Below, piece after piece: positions 36,648 to 44,020 of a stretch of DNA of 64,000 bases. The DNA comes from Bacteroidia bacterium (lineage in GTDB: Bacteria > Bacteroidota > Ignavibacteria > SZUA-365): NCBI GenBank assembly GCA_027493955.1, contig JAOSJT010000001.1:945131-1009130 (forward strand). The letters are read 5' to 3'. The notes below the pieces were generated by a model. That model ran no database searches and was not told the DNA's origin. It saw only the letters and a list, made by a program, of their open reading frames with translations. Each line of letters starts with the position of its first letter. Position 1 is the stretch's first letter. The translations under genes were made by a program, and so were the position numbers.

Positions 36648-39600
36648 ATGCGTATTTGCAGCGTTCTTTTCCTCGCCCTGCTGGCGACGAGTACGCTCCA
36701 CTGCCAGACGCTCGACAAATTCTATATCGGCGCATTCTGGGTGGGCGGCAATGCCACCGATACCGTACGGCAACCGAATCCCGGTTCGGTGGCAACCTAC
36801 AATGAAGCTACCAACTTACCCTCCGACCTCCCGCAAGGCAGATTCGACGAACTACAGGATCTTGGCCTCAATCTCGCGGGCATCGAGCTTCATTATAATT
36901 CCATCGTCCGTAGCGACGAAAACGGACAGCGCAACGTGCTCCGTGATATAACCGACGATCTGGTCGCAAACTACAGTACGGCCTTTGAAACCGACATCGA
37001 TGTGTGCATCTTCGACTGGGGGATACACACGGCCAGCGAACTCAACCGTGTTATCCTCAATCCGGAATCCACGTGGGATTTCGAGCACCGTACGTTCGAT
37101 TCAACAAGCCTCGCGGCACTTACTGCCTTCCGTAGTTTCCCATTCAACAACCTTCGAACCGACCGCTCCATCCTCGAACAAACGCAGACCATCAACTGCG
37201 TCCGCTTCACGCAACCGGGCGACACGGTCCGGGGCCTGCGCTTCGAGAGGAAACGGGAGCTGACCGCGAGAAAGAACTACTGGGGCGATAACGAATCCCA
37301 TCACAGCCAGCCTAAAAATCTGATCGCGGGGCTGTATCATCTTTCCGTGGTACTTGCGGATGATGAGGATGAGTTCACTAATCCTCCCAATTCATCGGCG
37401 ACGGTCCTGACCATCCGCATTTTCTCGACACATCCGGATTCCATAACCAAACGCGTTTCTCGCGATTTTGTCGTGCCGGGCAGCGCATTCTACGACGGTC
37501 CCACGCTCCGTGCCGCACCGTTCGAATATCACCTCGCTCAGATCGAGATGCGCATCGACTCGTTCGACGTGCGCACACCGGGGACCTCCGAGGACGCCTG
37601 GATGCACAGCGCCCTCACGGTAAACGATCCCGACTCGACAACGAACTGGGAGCGTACGGATGTGCTGGTGGCGGATCGACTCAAGCACTGGAAGGACCTC
37701 ATCGACAAGGACCTGATGGGTCCTCTTGAGATTGAAGTCTTTGCGAATTCGAACGCCCATTTTCTTGTCGACGCGGTGTGCCTGTCGAGCCCCGCCGCCT
37801 ACGGACTTTTCGCCTCGGGCGATAGTCATGCGGGTGTACATTCCGGCATGCATACGGATTTCATGACCCGCCTCTCCGCCATCGCCAGCGACCGCAACGG
37901 CGTGGGCAGCTTCACAACGAGCAGGATACCACTCATGACGGTCCAGGAACAGCGCCCGAGCATCGGCTCATGGCCAAGCGCGCGCGTGGTGGGTGCCGCC
38001 CTGGCCGACAGCCTCCCGCATTGCCTCCCCTACTCGGCGCACGGAGCGGAGGTAAGCACCGAGGATATGGGTCCATTGCTGGAATTTCACCGGAACATGG
38101 TTTCCGGATTTTACACGTATTCCGTGGACTACGCGTATCCCCGTATGTGTGAAGATCCGGACCCAAGCGCGTACTACGATTCTCTGTATCAGCACTACAG
38201 TTTCGCCAAGGCCGGTCGCATGCGTGACAATGTCACCCGCTACCGGAGCTATACCGTGAGCCGCGCTCTGAGAGGCATCCATGCGCCGTGGATTCCGTTT
38301 GTGCAAAACCACAGCAATATGTTCGTGCGGGATGCGGACTCTCTCGGAGTTGCGTGGGACAAGGATCCCCTGCGCGAACCCAACGCGGCCGAGCTAAGAC
38401 TGATGTGCAACATCGCGCTCGCCCACGGAGCGGATGGCATCATGTTCTATCAGTACAATACACATGGAGCGAGGATTATTGATGCCGCAAACGCCTGCTG
38501 GCCGCGTCTGCGTCGCGACTGGGTCTTGGACTCAACTCGTCAGATACATACCAACTCGGGTTCAATGGGCTTTCTGGGCGCCAACAACCTGCCGCGCGTG
38601 TGCGACACGAACGGTGAAAACAAATGGGATTCTACCAAAACTTATATCGCGGGATTTTTACGTCCCGTGGGCGAGCTCCTGCGGGAGATGACCTGGGAGC
38701 GAAGCAAATCCTGGTACTGCGGCGAAGGCGAGGCGCAACTGGTCTCGAAGGTCATCAGTCAGAGACAGGATGCGCTCGATCCCATCGACGGGTCGTCCGA
38801 AACGTTCGTGGAAACGGCGGAGTTCAGTGATGCGGGGACGAAGCACCTCCTCGTCATCAACGGCCGGGCGCATCGCGAGGGACAGCGGCATATCACGGTA
38901 AAGCTCGCACGACACGAAGTGACCTACGATGAATGGAAAGTGACCAACGTTCAGACAGGTGATATCTGGATCGTTCGGCCCAACGATGCACCCGACAGCA
39001 CCAGCACGGCGAACGGCTTCACCGAATTTTTCGCCCCCGGCTCGGCGGCGTTGTACCGTCTCGAACCGTTTGCGGACGAGACGCTGGATTTCGATGGCGA
39101 ATGTCTGTCGGGAAGCATCTTCATCGAACCGGCTGCGATGCTGTATATCAAGCCCTCCGATAACCTGCGCTTCCGGTCGGGACGCGGGCTCTATTGCGAT
39201 GGTCAGCTCTTCGGTCAGGGAGCCAGCTTCGATGCGTGCGATACTGAAATCACCTGGGAAGGGATTGTCGCTCGAAATAACGGAGAGGTCAACCTCGTCG
39301 ATGCGCTGATCTCCCGCGGCGGTGTCGTCGCCGGTTCGGGAGGTACGGTGGGGGTCAACAATATACAGGTCAGCGGGACCTCGACCGCCCTCAGGAATTA
39401 TGGGGGCGTGCTCGAAAGCGAAGGCAGCACGTCTACCGATGTTTTTCACCATCTCTCCGTCGTTGGACCCGGCTCGACCGGGACTCCCAGCACCTGGCTT
39501 GTTCGGGACATCGCGACGGGAAACGCTGAGGACAGTTCAACGGCGGTCTTCGTTTCCTTCGGAGATGCCGCCATTGACGAAATCGAAGCGGGAAACTTCT

Positions 39601-40814
39601 GGAGAAGCATCCGCTGTCTCGATGGACACCTGATCGGTGATGTGGATGGAGCCGAGCCGGTGGATGGATTGAACAATCGGCTTTCATCGGTATCCATCGG
39701 ACTCGAGGCGGGTTGGAGCGGCAGCATCGATCTTGGCGAAATTAGAATCAGCCCAACGGAATGCGCACGGAACCTGATTGCCATCGACAGCGCGATGGGA
39801 TATCACGCCATCTGCGAAACCGGATCCACCGTTGCGGCACGTCAAAACTGGTGGGATCCGCTCGATCTGCTTGCCGTACCCGATCCTATTCGTATTCAGG
39901 GGACAGTGCTCTACGATTACGTTCGCACGGATCCGTTACCGTTCGCGCCGACATATCGTGAGTCTCTTGCCGGTGGTCGGACCCTGGAGAAATCGATCGC
40001 ATCCCAACCAACGCCGACATTTTCCGACTCACTCCGCGCAGCGTTCAAACGTCGTGACACCCTCGCACTGCGGTCGTGCGTCACCGCATTCCTGCAATCT
40101 CCGGTCGCCGCTGTGGCGGAGTACACGCAGCTTCGCAGGATACACAGCATACTGCGTCAATCCGGCGAAGCGGATCTTGTCGATTCTCTTCTGCTGCTTT
40201 GTCTCCGGCGTCCCGATGTGGAGAGCAAGCTCCTTGCGTGCGATATCGCCACCGCCGATAGTCTGTATTCGGAAGCAATACAGATCCTGAACAGCTACAG
40301 CTTCATCGCCCGACCCTCACTGCAGACGCGCGCGCTCGTCCGTAAAACACAACTGTATCCCCGCTCCGGCCCCGGAGGGTATGTCTCCGGATTGAGCGCT
40401 CTGGATAGCCTGCTCTCACTTGCGGGCATCGATGGCCCGTTGCTGGATTATGCCGGTTGGTATCCCAGACTCTATTCGGGTCTGACGTCTGTGCAACGTC
40501 ACGCAATCCCGAAGTTGCCCGTACGTTCACTCCTCGACCGCGTCATTCCCTCCAGCATAGTAATGGGACAGAACTATCCCAATCCCTTCTCCGCCGTCAC
40601 GTCCTTCACCTTCAAACTCCCCGACACCCGCGAAGTGAAGCTCACCGTGCATGACATGCTCGGCCGCGAATTGACGGTGGTCAAACAGGGTATGCTCGAT
40701 CGCGGCGTCCACTCGGCGGTGCTGCATGCGGAAAGGCTCTCGGCGGGCATGTATTTGTATCGCCTGCAGGCCGGGAGCGAGGTGTTGCAGGGAAGGATGG
40801 TTCTTGTAAGGTAA
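36648..40814 (+). CDS. Giant secreted protein with T9SS-type C-terminus
   Basis: 1388 aa from ATG 36648 (AGGAGAAAGG just before; signal peptide ICSVLFLALLATSTLHCQ). Residues about 20-700 look like a large alpha/beta region with aromatic-rich segments (FYTYSVDYAYPRM, HGADGIMFYQYNTHGARI) reminiscent of glycoside-hydrolase-like barrels, but I cannot name a family. Residues about 800-1100 resemble a right-handed beta-helix or pectate-lyase-like region (NNGEVNLVDALISRGGVV). The end (MGQNYPNPFSAVTSFTF, LTVHDMLGRELTVV, LSAGMYLYRLQAG) is a clear T9SS sorting domain. Its stop codon lies inside the 13-bp repeat flanking the IS110 element. Confidence 0.8.
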   Translation: MRICSVLFLALLATSTLHCQTLDKFYIGAFWVGGNATDTVRQPNPGSVATYNEATNLPSDLPQGRFDELQDLGLNLAGIELHYNSIVRSDENGQRNVLRDITDDLVANYSTAFETDIDVCIFDWGIHTASELNRVILNPESTWDFEHRTFDSTSLAALTAFRSFPFNNLRTDRSILEQTQTINCVRFTQPGDTVRGLRFERKRELTARKNYWGDNESHHSQPKNLIAGLYHLSVVLADDEDEFTNPPNSSATVLTIRIFSTHPDSITKRVSRDFVVPGSAFYDGPTLRAAPFEYHLAQIEMRIDSFDVRTPGTSEDAWMHSALTVNDPDSTTNWERTDVLVADRLKHWKDLIDKDLMGPLEIEVFANSNAHFLVDAVCLSSPAAYGLFASGDSHAGVHSGMHTDFMTRLSAIASDRNGVGSFTTSRIPLMTVQEQRPSIGSWPSARVVGAALADSLPHCLPYSAHGAEVSTEDMGPLLEFHRNMVSGFYTYSVDYAYPRMCEDPDPSAYYDSLYQHYSFAKAGRMRDNVTRYRSYTVSRALRGIHAPWIPFVQNHSNMFVRDADSLGVAWDKDPLREPNAAELRLMCNIALAHGADGIMFYQYNTHGARIIDAANACWPRLRRDWVLDSTRQIHTNSGSMGFLGANNLPRVCDTNGENKWDSTKTYIAGFLRPVGELLREMTWERSKSWYCGEGEAQLVSKVISQRQDALDPIDGSSETFVETAEFSDAGTKHLLVINGRAHREGQRHITVKLARHEVTYDEWKVTNVQTGDIWIVRPNDAPDSTSTANGFTEFFAPGSAALYRLEPFADETLDFDGECLSGSIFIEPAAMLYIKPSDNLRFRSGRGLYCDGQLFGQGASFDACDTEITWEGIVARNNGEVNLVDALISRGGVVAGSGGTVGVNNIQVSGTSTALRNYGGVLESEGSTSTDVFHHLSVVGPGSTGTPSTWLVRDIATGNAEDSSTAVFVSFGDAAIDEIEAGNFWRSIRCLDGHLIGDVDGAEPVDGLNNRLSSVSIGLEAGWSGSIDLGEIRISPTECARNLIAIDSAMGYHAICETGSTVAARQNWWDPLDLLAVPDPIRIQGTVLYDYVRTDPLPFAPTYRESLAGGRTLEKSIASQPTPTFSDSLRAAFKRRDTLALRSCVTAFLQSPVAAVAEYTQLRRIHSILRQSGEADLVDSLLLLCLRRPDVESKLLACDIATADSLYSEAIQILNSYSFIARPSLQTRALVRKTQLYPRSGPGGYVSGLSALDSLLSLAGIDGPLLDYAGWYPRLYSGLTSVQRHAIPKLPVRSLLDRVIPSSIVMGQNYPNPFSAVTSFTFKLPDTREVKLTVHDMLGRELTVVKQGMLDRGVHSAVLHAERLSAGMYLYRLQAGSEVLQGRMVLVR

Positions 40815-40910
40815 AGGGTAAAGAGACGGTATGTTGAAAATGGATAGCAAACCTCACCGTCGTTGATGCATACATTGCATCACCAACAATATACCAACAG
40901 GAGGTTTGCT

Positions 40911-42038
40911 ATGACTCGGAAACTGAAACTTCAACCTATCAAAGAAATGTTTGCCGATCAAGATCTCTACATCGGCATCGACGTACACCTGAAGAGTTGG
41001 ACCGTTTGTATCCTCACCGCGACACGTGTGTATCGATCATTTAATCAGCCACCGGATCCTTCTGTGCTTATTGATCATTTACATCGACACTTTCCCGGCG
41101 CCCGATACCATTGCGTCTATGAAGCCGGATACTTTGGATTTTCGGCGGCACGCGCACTCAACGCCGCCGGTGTCGAGTGCATTGTCGTACACCCCGCGGA
41201 TGTTCCCCAATCGGATTATGAGCGGCGGAACAAATCGGATCGCATCGACGCCCGGAAACTCGCGCATGAATTGCGCGGCAAACACTTGAAGGCGATCTAC
41301 ATACCCGAGGCGGAGATGGAACAAGACCGTGGGCTTCTGCGGGCGCGCGAGGATGTGGTCACAAAGCAATCGCGCGTCAAGCATCAAATCCGCGCCTATT
41401 TGAAGCAGCATGCGGTGCCGTTTCCGTTGAACGAGAGTGGTTCTCCGCGTTCATGGTCTCGCGCGGTGATTGCCAAACTCGCGAAGATCGTTTTGCCCGC
41501 ACACAGTGGCACACGCACGTTGCAATTCCTTGTTCGGGAGTTGTTGTTCCACCGTGAGCAACTTCTCGAGCTCACCCGCGAGATACGCGCGTTGTCCCGC
41601 ACCGCGCGCTATGCCGAGAATGTGGAGCTGCTCTGTAGTTGTCCGGGCATTGGTATGGTAACAGCCATGGCGTTATTAACGGAATTGGCGGATATCCGAC
41701 GCTTCCCCAATGCCGATCGCCTCGCCAAATATATCGGGCTGATACCGGACGAGGAGTCGAGCGGCGATACGAAGAAGACGAAGGGCGTATCGAAGCGGCG
41801 GAACGCGCATCTGCGTCACAAATTGATCGAAAGCGCCTGGGTTGCCGCGCGCACCGACCCGGCCCTGATCGCCGTGTACGAAAGGGCATGCCGCCGTATG
41901 AAGAAACAACGCGCAATTATTGTCGTCGCGCGGAAATTGTTGAATCGACTCCGCGCGGTGCTGTTACGCAAAGAAAAGTACCAGATGGGCCAGACGGCCA
42001 TGCTGGCGAGCGAAGACACGTTGGAGCACGCGGCCTAA
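40911..42038 (+). CDS. IS110-family transposase (DEDD)
   Basis: 375 aa. RuvC-like DEDD domain with D24 (IGIDVHLKSW), E71 (CVYEAGYFG), D110 and D113 (KSDRIDARKLAHE). The C-terminal Transposase_20 domain has LLCSCPGIGMVTAMALLTEL and SSGDTKKTKGVSKRRNAHLR, where the Ser of the SG motif is the expected second catalytic residue. AGGAGG lies 6 bases before the ATG; a longer frame upstream is not needed. The gene appears intact. Proteins of this family act with an element-encoded guide RNA in the systems studied. Confidence 0.95.
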   Translation: MTRKLKLQPIKEMFADQDLYIGIDVHLKSWTVCILTATRVYRSFNQPPDPSVLIDHLHRHFPGARYHCVYEAGYFGFSAARALNAAGVECIVVHPADVPQSDYERRNKSDRIDARKLAHELRGKHLKAIYIPEAEMEQDRGLLRAREDVVTKQSRVKHQIRAYLKQHAVPFPLNESGSPRSWSRAVIAKLAKIVLPAHSGTRTLQFLVRELLFHREQLLELTREIRALSRTARYAENVELLCSCPGIGMVTAMALLTELADIRRFPNADRLAKYIGLIPDEESSGDTKKTKGVSKRRNAHLRHKLIESAWVAARTDPALIAVYERACRRMKKQRAIIVVARKLLNRLRAVLLRKEKYQMGQTAMLASEDTLEHAA

Positions 42039-42082
42039 ACACCGCCCGTCTCCGAAGGGCAACGTCCCCAGCTCGTCCGAGT

Positions 42083-42216
42083 AGACGCATTTTTCTGTGG
42101 ATCTCAACGCTTACCCTTTACTGCGGCAAACACGACGAATCACCGCACGAGACGCATTTTTCTGTGGATCTCAACGCTTACCCTTTACTGCGGCAAACAC
42201 GACGAATCACCGCACG
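42083..42216. repeat. 67-bp perfect tandem duplication downstream of the transposase
   Basis: Two head-to-tail copies (42083-42149, 42150-42216) beginning AGACGCATTTTTCTGTGGAT. Each contains TTACCCTTTAC (42111-42121 and 42178-42188), the reverse complement of the first 11 bases of the 13-bp repeat flanking the element. Confidence 0.95.
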
Positions 42217-42381
42217 AGGTGCACCGAATCGTACGCCTGACCGCTTTTTAGAGACTGCGGATCCACCCATGATAGAACGTAATAACGGATTTGTGGCGTA
42301 TTGATAACGAGCGTCTCTCTCGGGTACGACCACTCACAAAAGTCTCCGCGTCATGGTCGAGCAACAAACGGACAGTCGTAT

Positions 42382-42525
42382 GCCCACGTTCCACCAAGGA
42401 AAGATGGCCCGGTGATCCCCGCTGTCAAGATGGCGGGACACACTTCAGCTTGAAGACCACGGGCCAGCACCGCATCTTGACAGCACGGCTCCACCGAGCC
42501 CATGGGCTTCTGGTGGAACATGGGC
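42382..42525. ncRNA. Nested palindrome, candidate structured RNA or MITE
   Basis: 144 bases with two nested stems. Outer: GCCCACGTTCCACCA (42382-42396) against TGGTGGAACATGGGC (42511-42525), 14 of 15 paired. Inner: GCTGTCAAGATGGCGG (from 42421) against CCGCATCTTGACAGC (42470-42484), one bulge. The loop has a small CTTCA/TGAAG stem. A run of seven T follows at about 42550. Either an RNA gene of the IS110 element or a miniature inverted-repeat element; strand cannot be decided. The remaining bases up to 42746 hold no gene. Confidence 0.4.
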
Positions 42526-42746
42526 TAGAGAAGTATGTGCGGACTGACATTTTTTTCTGGTGATGGCTTGCTTTTTCACACAAAAGTAAAGGGTAAAGGG
42601 GTCTATAACCGTAGAGTGTACTCTTCATCCTTTATCAGTTTGTCATACGCTCAAGGCGGTCCGGACACGCGCCGGGCCGCCTCCCTTTGCCGGATCATTC
42701 GAGAACAGAAAATGCATAGATTACACACTTCAGAACTGGTGCGCAT

Positions 42747-43649
42747 ATGAAATCGATCATCCTTCCTCTTTTCGCTTTGCTCGTGTTCACCTTCGCCGCC
42801 TGCGACAGCACGGAGCCGACGTTGCCCGCTCTCGCCGCTCCGGCGCAACTCAGGGCTGCATCCGATAGCGGTGCCCTCATACTTGCCTGGAGTCCATCGA
42901 CGGACGAGGGGCATTCCGAATTTTCGGGCTATCACGTGACCGTGACGGACACCCGCACCGAAGCAATACAACATTTTGATGCGGGACGGAACAGCACGTA
43001 TCGTCTCACAGGTCTCGAAAATGGCGTGCTCTATCGCCTCGCTGTCCGATGTTGGGGCAAGGACGGTCTTTCCTCCCCGCAGGAGCGTTCCATCCTCTGG
43101 TCGCCCGCACAGCGCCGTGCGCACGATGCCGCCGGACAGCCGATACGCGTGTATGCCGTCACCGCCACCGGCTACCCCTCGGCCGTGGACATCCTGAATC
43201 CCGAAGGCCGCGTCGAAGCGTTACTGCTCAACTCCGCCGCCTTCCGCGAACGCGCCAGTCTGTATGTGCATACACTCGGCAGCGCGGCCGCCCTGATCAT
43301 ACGCAGTCCCGAGCTTGCCTTCGATCCCGGTCCCCGTACCCGCTTCGCGGATTGGGTGAACGGCGGCTATGTAATGGAAGCCAACAGTCTCAACGAGCCG
43401 CTCGCCTCCTCTCCTCCGGACACGTCTACCTACACCGCCACGTTCATCACGCTTCCGAACGGCACGTATCCGAAGGGGCGCGTGTACTTCGGCAAACTGC
43501 TGCGGCCCGGCGGCGACATCTATTTCCGCATGCTGGTCAAGCGCGGCGCGAACGGTCGCATGGCGCAGGGCACGGGCGACAATCGCTATATCGAAATCGA
43601 GGTGAGCGTGCAGAGCACGGCGGGGAATCACTTCGCGAAGCGGGGGTGA
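42747..43649 (+). CDS. Lipoprotein with fibronectin type III-like domain
   Basis: 300 aa. Lipobox VFTFAAC with Cys near residue 19 after a short hydrophobic stretch, so membrane-anchored. Residues about 30-115 read as FN3: APAQLRAASDSGALILAWSP, FSGYHVTVTDTRT, TYRLTGLENGVLYRLAVRCW. The remainder (about 120-300) is not recognised; it ends YIEIEVSVQST with charged residues. No obvious Shine-Dalgarno. Stands alone between the IS110 element and a repeat array. Function unknown. Confidence 0.75.
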   Translation: MKSIILPLFALLVFTFAACDSTEPTLPALAAPAQLRAASDSGALILAWSPSTDEGHSEFSGYHVTVTDTRTEAIQHFDAGRNSTYRLTGLENGVLYRLAVRCWGKDGLSSPQERSILWSPAQRRAHDAAGQPIRVYAVTATGYPSAVDILNPEGRVEALLLNSAAFRERASLYVHTLGSAAALIIRSPELAFDPGPRTRFADWVNGGYVMEANSLNEPLASSPPDTSTYTATFITLPNGTYPKGRVYFGKLLRPGGDIYFRMLVKRGANGRMAQGTGDNRYIEIEVSVQSTAGNHFAKRG

Positions 43650-43780
43650 GCACTCACATCTCCACCATCTCCCGGTGGCATGGCCGGAATACCAAAAGGG
43701 CGCCTCGTTCGAAGTAAATAAAACAGTTCAGAACTGAACCTCTTTTCCTCTTAACCCGCTCGTCATCAAGACCGCAAGAC

Positions 43781-44020
43781 TGCCCGGTAACAGGCCCCTT
43801 TTGCCTTTACCCTTCACCCTTTACCATGCATCACCTTTACGACAAAGGAGCCCGGAAACCCGCCCCCTTTACCCTTTACTCTTCACCCTTTACCAGGAAT
43901 CATCGAAACTAACCTATCAGCCCGCAACAGCGCCCCTTTACTCTTTACCCTTTACCCTTTACCAAGATTCTCCAAAACCACAAGGCGTCCCGGCAACAGA
44001 CCCCTTCACTCTTTACCCTT
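43781..44020. repeat. Composite array: about 69-bp units carrying TTTACCC heptamers
   Basis: Four imperfect units begin with CCCGG/CCCGC-AACAG-like blocks at 43783, 43851, 43921 and 43989 (spacing 68, 70, 68). Each continues with runs of CCCTTTA/CCCTTCA heptamers and an AGGAATC/AAGATTC-like tail. The array fills the gap between two convergent genes (lipoprotein and nadB); 43650-43780 has nothing else. Frames across it encode repeated FTLYQ-like peptides but have no start signals and are not considered genes. Confidence 0.85.

What the first reader, a model, noticed from the sequence alone, without database searches (positions are those of the whole stretch)
40811..42598. IS110 element whose downstream repeats contain the complement of its flanking 13-bp sequence
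Both edges of the element show GTAAAGGGTAAAG (40811-40823, 42586-42598). Downstream of the transposase, a 67-bp unit present twice contains TTACCCTTTAC, complementary to 11 of those 13 bases. IS110-family recombinases are known to be directed by an element-encoded bridge/seek RNA whose loops pair with target and donor DNA; in the IS1111-type branch this RNA lies 3' of the transposase. The long 3' non-coding part and short 5' part here fit that branch. The duplicated guide-like unit would be unusual: two guides in one element. A caution: TTTACCC heptamers are frequent in this genome, so the match may reflect insertion into such an array.
Basis: partly seen in the sequence, partly recalled or inferred. 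Interest (0 to 1): 0.78.

Follow-up and report, generated by a model that had tools for sequence, protein, structure and literature searches.

The report
RNA-guided insertion sequence aimed at microsatellites
This is a jumping gene of the RNA-guided IS1111/IS110 kind whose own guide RNA is addressed to a seven-base repeat scattered through its host genome, and half of its targeting loop is present twice in tandem, which is unusual but probably a recent accident.

Summary
The element (40824-42584, one core copy included) is an IS1111-type DEDD insertion sequence with its long non-coding region 3' of the transposase. TTACCCTTTACT, present twice, sits exactly where relatives carry the right-half target guide. 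In a set of 46 elements (window included) guides fit their own right flanks better than foreign ones (0 of 20,000 permutations reach it); the window fits 12 of 12. A second guide (AGAGAC, 42250-42255) fits the left flank, and a donor guide (CACAAAAG) matches the element's right end and covaries with it across the family. The target-binding loop shows compensatory changes (7 of 12 pairs).

The 13-bp edges are not a target duplication. They are neighbouring stretches of a GGTAAAG heptamer array; joining the flanks at an AG core restores the heptamer register.

Correction: the 67-bp unit repeats only the 5' half of the loop (outer stem strand plus right guide). There is one left guide, so 'two guides' is one and a half, with identical address. 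No other relative has it. Most likely recent slippage. Two relatives also sit in 9-bp tandem arrays.

The parts
40810..40823 (+). left flank: two GGTAAAG heptamer units (outside the element)
   Evidence: heptamer register continues into the right flank when joined at the AG core
40824..40825 (+). left copy of the AG core dinucleotide; left end of the element
   Evidence: by alignment with ends of relatives (xxAG-ACCTTATG) and restored heptamer register
40826..40840 (+). left end ACGGTATGTTGAAAA, with subterminal inverted repeat TATGTTGAAAA and the -10 half (TATGTT 40830-40835) of the predicted circle-junction promoter
   Evidence: TTGCTT-17 bp-TATGTT appears when the ends are abutted
40847..40909 (+). 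hairpin GCAAACCTC (40847-40855) / GAGGTTTGC (40901-40909) covering the ribosome-binding site of the transposase
   Evidence: I7; similar hairpins with different sequence in relatives by eye
40911..42038 (+). DEDD transposase, 375 aa from ATG
   Evidence: Pfam DEDD_Tnp_IS110 2e-15 and Transposase_20 5e-24; matches solved ISCro4 and IS621 transposases
42083..42149 (+). 67-bp unit, copy 1 (5' half of target-binding loop; right guide TTACCCTTTACT at 42111-42122)
42150..42216 (+). 67-bp unit, copy 2 (right guide TTACCCTTTACT at 42178-42189)
42164..42266 (+). target-binding loop as in relatives: outer stem 42164-42170/42260-42266, right guide 42178-42189, inner stem 42190-42195/42238-42244, left guide 42247-42255 (TTTAGAGAC)
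   Evidence: fold z -2.49; covariation in 13 sequences
42285..42342 (+). putative donor-binding loop: stem 42293-42300/42325-42333, right-end donor guide CACAAAAG 42335-42342; left-end guide slot 42285-42289 (ACGGA) is mismatched to the left end
   Evidence: right-end guide covaries with right end across relatives; left slot
42568..42584 (+). right end TTGCTTTTTCACACAAA (subterminal repeat, -35 half of junction promoter)
42585..42600 (+). AG core (42585-42586) and right flank TAAAGGGTAAAGGG (target array, outside the element)
   Evidence: complementary to the right guide over 12 nt

Best explanation
An IS1111-type insertion sequence (IS110 superfamily). Its DEDD transposase is guided by an RNA from the 3' non-coding region. 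The RNA has a target-binding internal loop: the 5' side (TTACCCTTTACT) pairs with one strand of the target to the right of an AG core, the 3' side (AGAGAC) with the other strand to the left. A second loop carries a guide for the element's own right end. The address is the host's dispersed GGTAAAG heptamer array, here the AGTAAAG variant unit. The 67-bp tandem repeat duplicates the 5' half of the target loop; most likely a recent replication-slippage event that leaves the address unchanged and is nearly neutral, because either 5' half can pair with the single 3' half. Shown: anatomy, guide-flank matching, covariation. Inferred: RNA production, recombination, neutrality of the duplication.
For: Guide/right-flank score over 46 elements 9.08 for own pairs against 7.13 for foreign pairs, 0 of 20,000 permutations; window scores 12, best foreign 10.5. 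Right-end donor guide covaries (own mean 6.7, different ends 5.2 of 8; window 8 of 8). Loop structure conserved with compensatory changes: 88.5% of cells paired, 7 of 12 pairs changed on both sides, slid controls at most 54%. Loop of copy 2 folds better than shuffles, z -2.49. Heptamer register restored in the joined flanks. Junction promoter TTGCTT-17-TATGTT. Duplication absent from about 70 other relatives and perfect, hence recent. Mechanism of the family: PMC11187229, PMC11208160.
Against: Only one full copy in the genome, so no second insertion of this same element tests the address. The donor-left guide slot reads ACGGA where ACCGT is expected. The left guide match is short (AGAGAC, and its AC lies inside the element). 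The full-length RNA is not unusually stable (z +0.55 to +1.2). No empty allele of the same site was found; a paralogous gene pair lacks both element and heptamers. The 67-bp duplication could be an assembly error; no reads were available.
Confidence: 0.87

Rival explanations
1. The duplicated half-loop is functional: two alternative target loops (copy 1 or copy 2 pairing with the single 3' half) raise guide RNA yield or change processing, and the duplication is maintained by selection.
For: Partition function shows that both loops can form: copy 2 at 0.96 in a long transcript, copy 1 at 0.77-0.98 in shorter ones. Both copies keep guide, outer strand and inner strand intact.
Against: Perfect identity needs no selection if recent; absent from all other relatives; copy 1 would enclose the whole of copy 2 in the inner arm, unlike any relative.
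Confidence: 0.12
2. The complement between unit and flank is a by-product of heptamer abundance: the element landed in a common array, and the unit picked up a heptamer by chance or from an array.
For: 74 GTAAAGGGTAA sites in the genome against 2 for the reversed control.
Against: The match fills exactly the guide slot bounded by conserved stems, extends through the AG core (12 nt), and relatives have other sequences there that match their own flanks. Only 12 nt match; no array was copied in.
Confidence: 0.03
3. The 67-bp tandem repeat is an assembly artefact and the real element has one loop.
For: Perfect 67-bp identity; unique among relatives.
Against: The genome is held as a single 5.24 Mb contig in which repeats longer than 67 bp, such as heptamer arrays and paralogous genes of up to 95% identity, are resolved. 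No reads to decide.
Confidence: 0.12

Closest known systems
IS1111 family with seekRNA (ISEc11, ISKpn4, ISPa11; PMC11187229)
   Same: DEDD transposase with GL-P----SG motif, long 3' non-coding region, right-guide (top-strand complement) before left-guide, 6-7 bp left and 3 bp right terminal extensions, promoter formed at the circle junction
   Different: transposase 375 aa instead of 330-350; imperfect subterminal repeats; 5' half of the target loop tandemly duplicated; target is a heptamer microsatellite
IS621 and bridge RNA (IS110 group; PMC11208160)
   Same: two-loop RNA with target-binding and donor-binding guides split over two strands, a short core shared by target and donor, multi-copy repetitive target (REP there)
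   Different: bridge RNA is 5' of the gene in IS621; guide order reversed; one set of loops
TIGR-Tas arrays (PMC12045711)
   Same: dual-guide RNAs bound by a related Nop-type domain; repeated guide units occur
   Different: TIGR units are complete and varied; here only half a unit is repeated, with identical address, in a transposase system

Membership tests
IS1111 family (IS110 superfamily) | DEDD transposase with Transposase_20 C-terminal domain | tested here: met
   both Pfam models nearly full length
IS1111 family (IS110 superfamily) | GL-P----S(T)G motif in the C-terminal domain | tested here: met
   GLIPDEESSG in the translation; motif as given in PMC11187229
IS1111 family (IS110 superfamily) | long non-coding region downstream of the gene | tested here: met
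   546 nt after the stop codon against 87 nt before the start
IS1111 family (IS110 superfamily) | subterminal inverted repeats of about 11-13 bp, perfect or near-perfect | tested here: inconclusive
   TATGTTGAAAA against TGTGT-GAAAA: 9 of 11 with one gap, imperfect; a relative, L027, has 12 of 13 with one gap
IS1111 family (IS110 superfamily) | terminal extensions 7 (or 6) bp left, 3 bp right | tested here: met
   AGACGG (6) and AAA (3) with the ends set by the core and by relatives
IS1111 family (IS110 superfamily) | RNA with top-strand complement 5' of bottom-strand match to the target | tested here: met
   TTACCCTTTACT 42178-42189, then AGAGAC 42250-42255; family-wide test of the first; the second compared by eye only
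IS1111 family (IS110 superfamily) | transposase length 330-350 aa (a usual range, not a strict criterion) | tested here: not met
   375 aa from ATG 40911; relatives here are of similar length; range from PMC11187229
IS1111 family (IS110 superfamily) | seekRNA bound to transposase; circular intermediate | not testable with these tools
   needs RNA sequencing and PCR; only the junction promoter was seen in sequence
IS1111 family (IS110 superfamily) | transposase groups with IS1111 and not IS110 members in a tree | not tested
   no ISfinder reference set was on hand
bridge RNA with donor-binding loop | RNA segment that covaries with the element's ends | tested here: met
   right end: window 8 of 8; the left-end slot is mismatched in the window

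The most novel reading that the evidence does not exclude
An IS1111 element caught in the act of becoming a multi-guide element: its target half-loop has been duplicated, so that one copy is free to change and the RNA could address two targets, a route by which these elements reprogram themselves and by which guide arrays could arise; combined with a habit of this clade of taking dispersed short tandem repeats as landing sites.
Probability: 0.1. Interest if true: 0.75.

Novelty: new variant of a known kind. Interest (0 to 1): 0.45.

Why it matters
It shows that guide-RNA insertion sequences can be addressed to microsatellite arrays, which offers them many probably harmless intergenic landing sites in a host, and gives a natural case (a duplicated half-guide) for asking how these elements change their address. 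The family set collected here (about 70 loci) gives readable guide, target and donor matches for a clade that is not among the elements tested experimentally in the two 2024 papers.

Tried and rejected
Viral contigs: no relative. Close copies in 197 related genomes: none by DNA except fragments. First automatic guide test with a fixed GC[AGT] anchor was blurred by wrong right ends and subfamily-specific motifs (diagonal 6.7 against 6.1); replaced by an anchor-free test, in which a few right ends are still misplaced (L027, L083, L081), which lowers the score. Folding the whole non-coding region gave no stability above shuffles; the signal is confined to the target loop. Empty site: a flank search found mainly the neighbouring L-aspartate oxidase-like gene in relatives; the paralogous gene pair in the same genome lacks heptamers and element, so it shows only that the two genes can lie side by side without the element. 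Target site duplication of 13 bp: rejected in favour of array units. Paper searches for IS110 elements with tandem repeat targets or duplicated guides gave nothing; the library holds open-licence papers only.

Full report
What is there. The transposase ORF runs 40911-42038 and matches Pfam DEDD_Tnp_IS110 and Transposase_20; the closest solved structures are ISCro4 and IS621 transposases. The non-coding region is 546 nt after the gene and 87 nt before it. The 67-bp unit is perfectly repeated at 42083-42149 and 42150-42216. The genome (G000, 5.24 Mb, one contig) has one full copy and a 5' remnant.

Ends. Ends of relatives read xxAG-ACCTTATGTT on the left and TTAACATAAA-AG on the right. By the same rule the window element has AG at 40824-40825 and at 42585-42586. 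Joining the flanks there gives GGTAAAG GGTAAAG AGTAAAG GGTAAAG GG, an unbroken heptamer register. The 13-bp edge repeats are therefore two stretches of the same array on either side of the insertion, not a duplication made by transposition. Abutting the ends creates TTGCTT-17 bp-TATGTT, as expected for the circle-junction promoter of these families (PMC11187229).

Right guide. In relatives the non-coding region carries the complement of the element's own right flank, beginning at the core: L026 CCCCGCCT for AGGCGGGG, L027 TGTCATTCT for AGAATGACA, L005 GAAACATCT for AGATGTTTC, L014 ATCACTAACT for AGTTAGTGAT. Scored without any anchor over 46 elements, the window included, own pairs average 9.08 and foreign pairs 7.13; none of 20,000 permutations reaches the observed mean. 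The window pair scores 12 of 12; the best foreign flank scores 10.5. Many relatives share targets, which makes the test conservative.

Loop structure. In 13 sequences (window and 12 relatives) the guide lies on the 5' side of an internal loop between an outer stem and an inner stem starting GC[AG]G, and a short same-strand copy of the left flank lies on the 3' side. 88.5% of cells pair, 7 of 12 pairs have changes on both sides, and sliding the partner by 1-3 columns drops pairing to at most 54%. The window's copy 2 gives this fold with z -2.49. The window's left guide is TTTAGAGAC (42247-42255), of which AGAG matches the left flank and core. The left-guide matches in relatives were compared by eye only.

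Donor guide. A second loop carries a copy of the right end, for example ATAGCGG, ATAACAG, ATAAGAG, ATAGATG, each matching that element's own right end. The window has CACAAAAG (42335-42342), matching its unusual right end CACACAAAAG where most relatives have ACATAAAAG. The slot that should pair with the left end reads ACGGA where ACCGT is expected; this is unexplained.

The duplication. The unit covers the outer 5' strand, the right guide and part of the inner arm, not the left guide or the donor loop. It is therefore half a loop with an identical address. No other relative among about 70 loci has a repeat there, some being cut at contig ends. By computed folding either half can close the loop: copy 2 in the long transcript (0.96), copy 1 in shorter ones (0.77-0.98). 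Recent slippage is the simplest reading.

Targets. GTAAAGGGTAA occurs 74 times in this genome, two of them the guides themselves, against 2 for the reversed control. Two other relatives also sit in short tandem arrays whose register continues across the joined flanks: L077 (9 bp) and L095 (9 bp). Random 80-mers show such periodicity in 0.05-0.3% of cases, so 3 of about 31 is an excess, with the reservations that the window was picked partly because of its array (without it, 2 of 30) and that microsatellite content differs between genomes. Targeting of repetitive sequence is known in these families (REP for ISPa11 in PMC11187229; REP for IS621 in PMC11208160); targeting of microsatellites was not found in the papers held.

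Verdict. A well-supported new IS1111-type element with a readable address. The unusual part is the repeated half-loop, whose function is unproven and probably nil.

Noticed in passing
G000:C1:1649714-1649882 (-), L061: A 5' remnant of a related element (74% identity to the first ~170 bp), no heptamers beside it, between two similar copies of a ~1 kb stretch; its left end reads ACCGTACG, which fits the window's odd donor slot ACGGA better than the window's own left end does.
   Followed up: partly
window 40847-40909 and relatives L004, L010, L022, L026, L028: A hairpin over the ribosome-binding site and start of the transposase gene, with different sequence but the same pairing in relatives; possibly limits transposase translation.
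   Followed up: partly
L077 (flanks) and L095 (flanks): Two relatives inserted in 9-bp tandem arrays (AGTGTATGG-like and AGTGACATC-like), with right guides that match array units in part.
   Followed up: partly
G000:C1:4307700-4307930 (L062), 481030-481147, 2903080-2903170 (L065), window 43806-43963: Dispersed GGTAAAG/AGTAAAG/GGTGAAG heptamer arrays, up to about 30 units; origin and function unknown.
   Followed up: no
L064 (G000:C1:3156300-3157700): Longer tandem repeats of about 80-95 bp, each with a heptamer pair between copies.
   Followed up: no
L128 (G000:C1:3482800-3488500) against window 36941-40728 and 43237-43650: A paralogous copy of the gene pair that flanks the element (parts up to 95% identical), without element or heptamers between the genes.
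   Followed up: yes
L075, L079, L094, L103 right flanks: Flanks AGCTTGAGCG(C/A)CTGGTT look like integron attC-type sites, a known IS1111 target.
   Followed up: no
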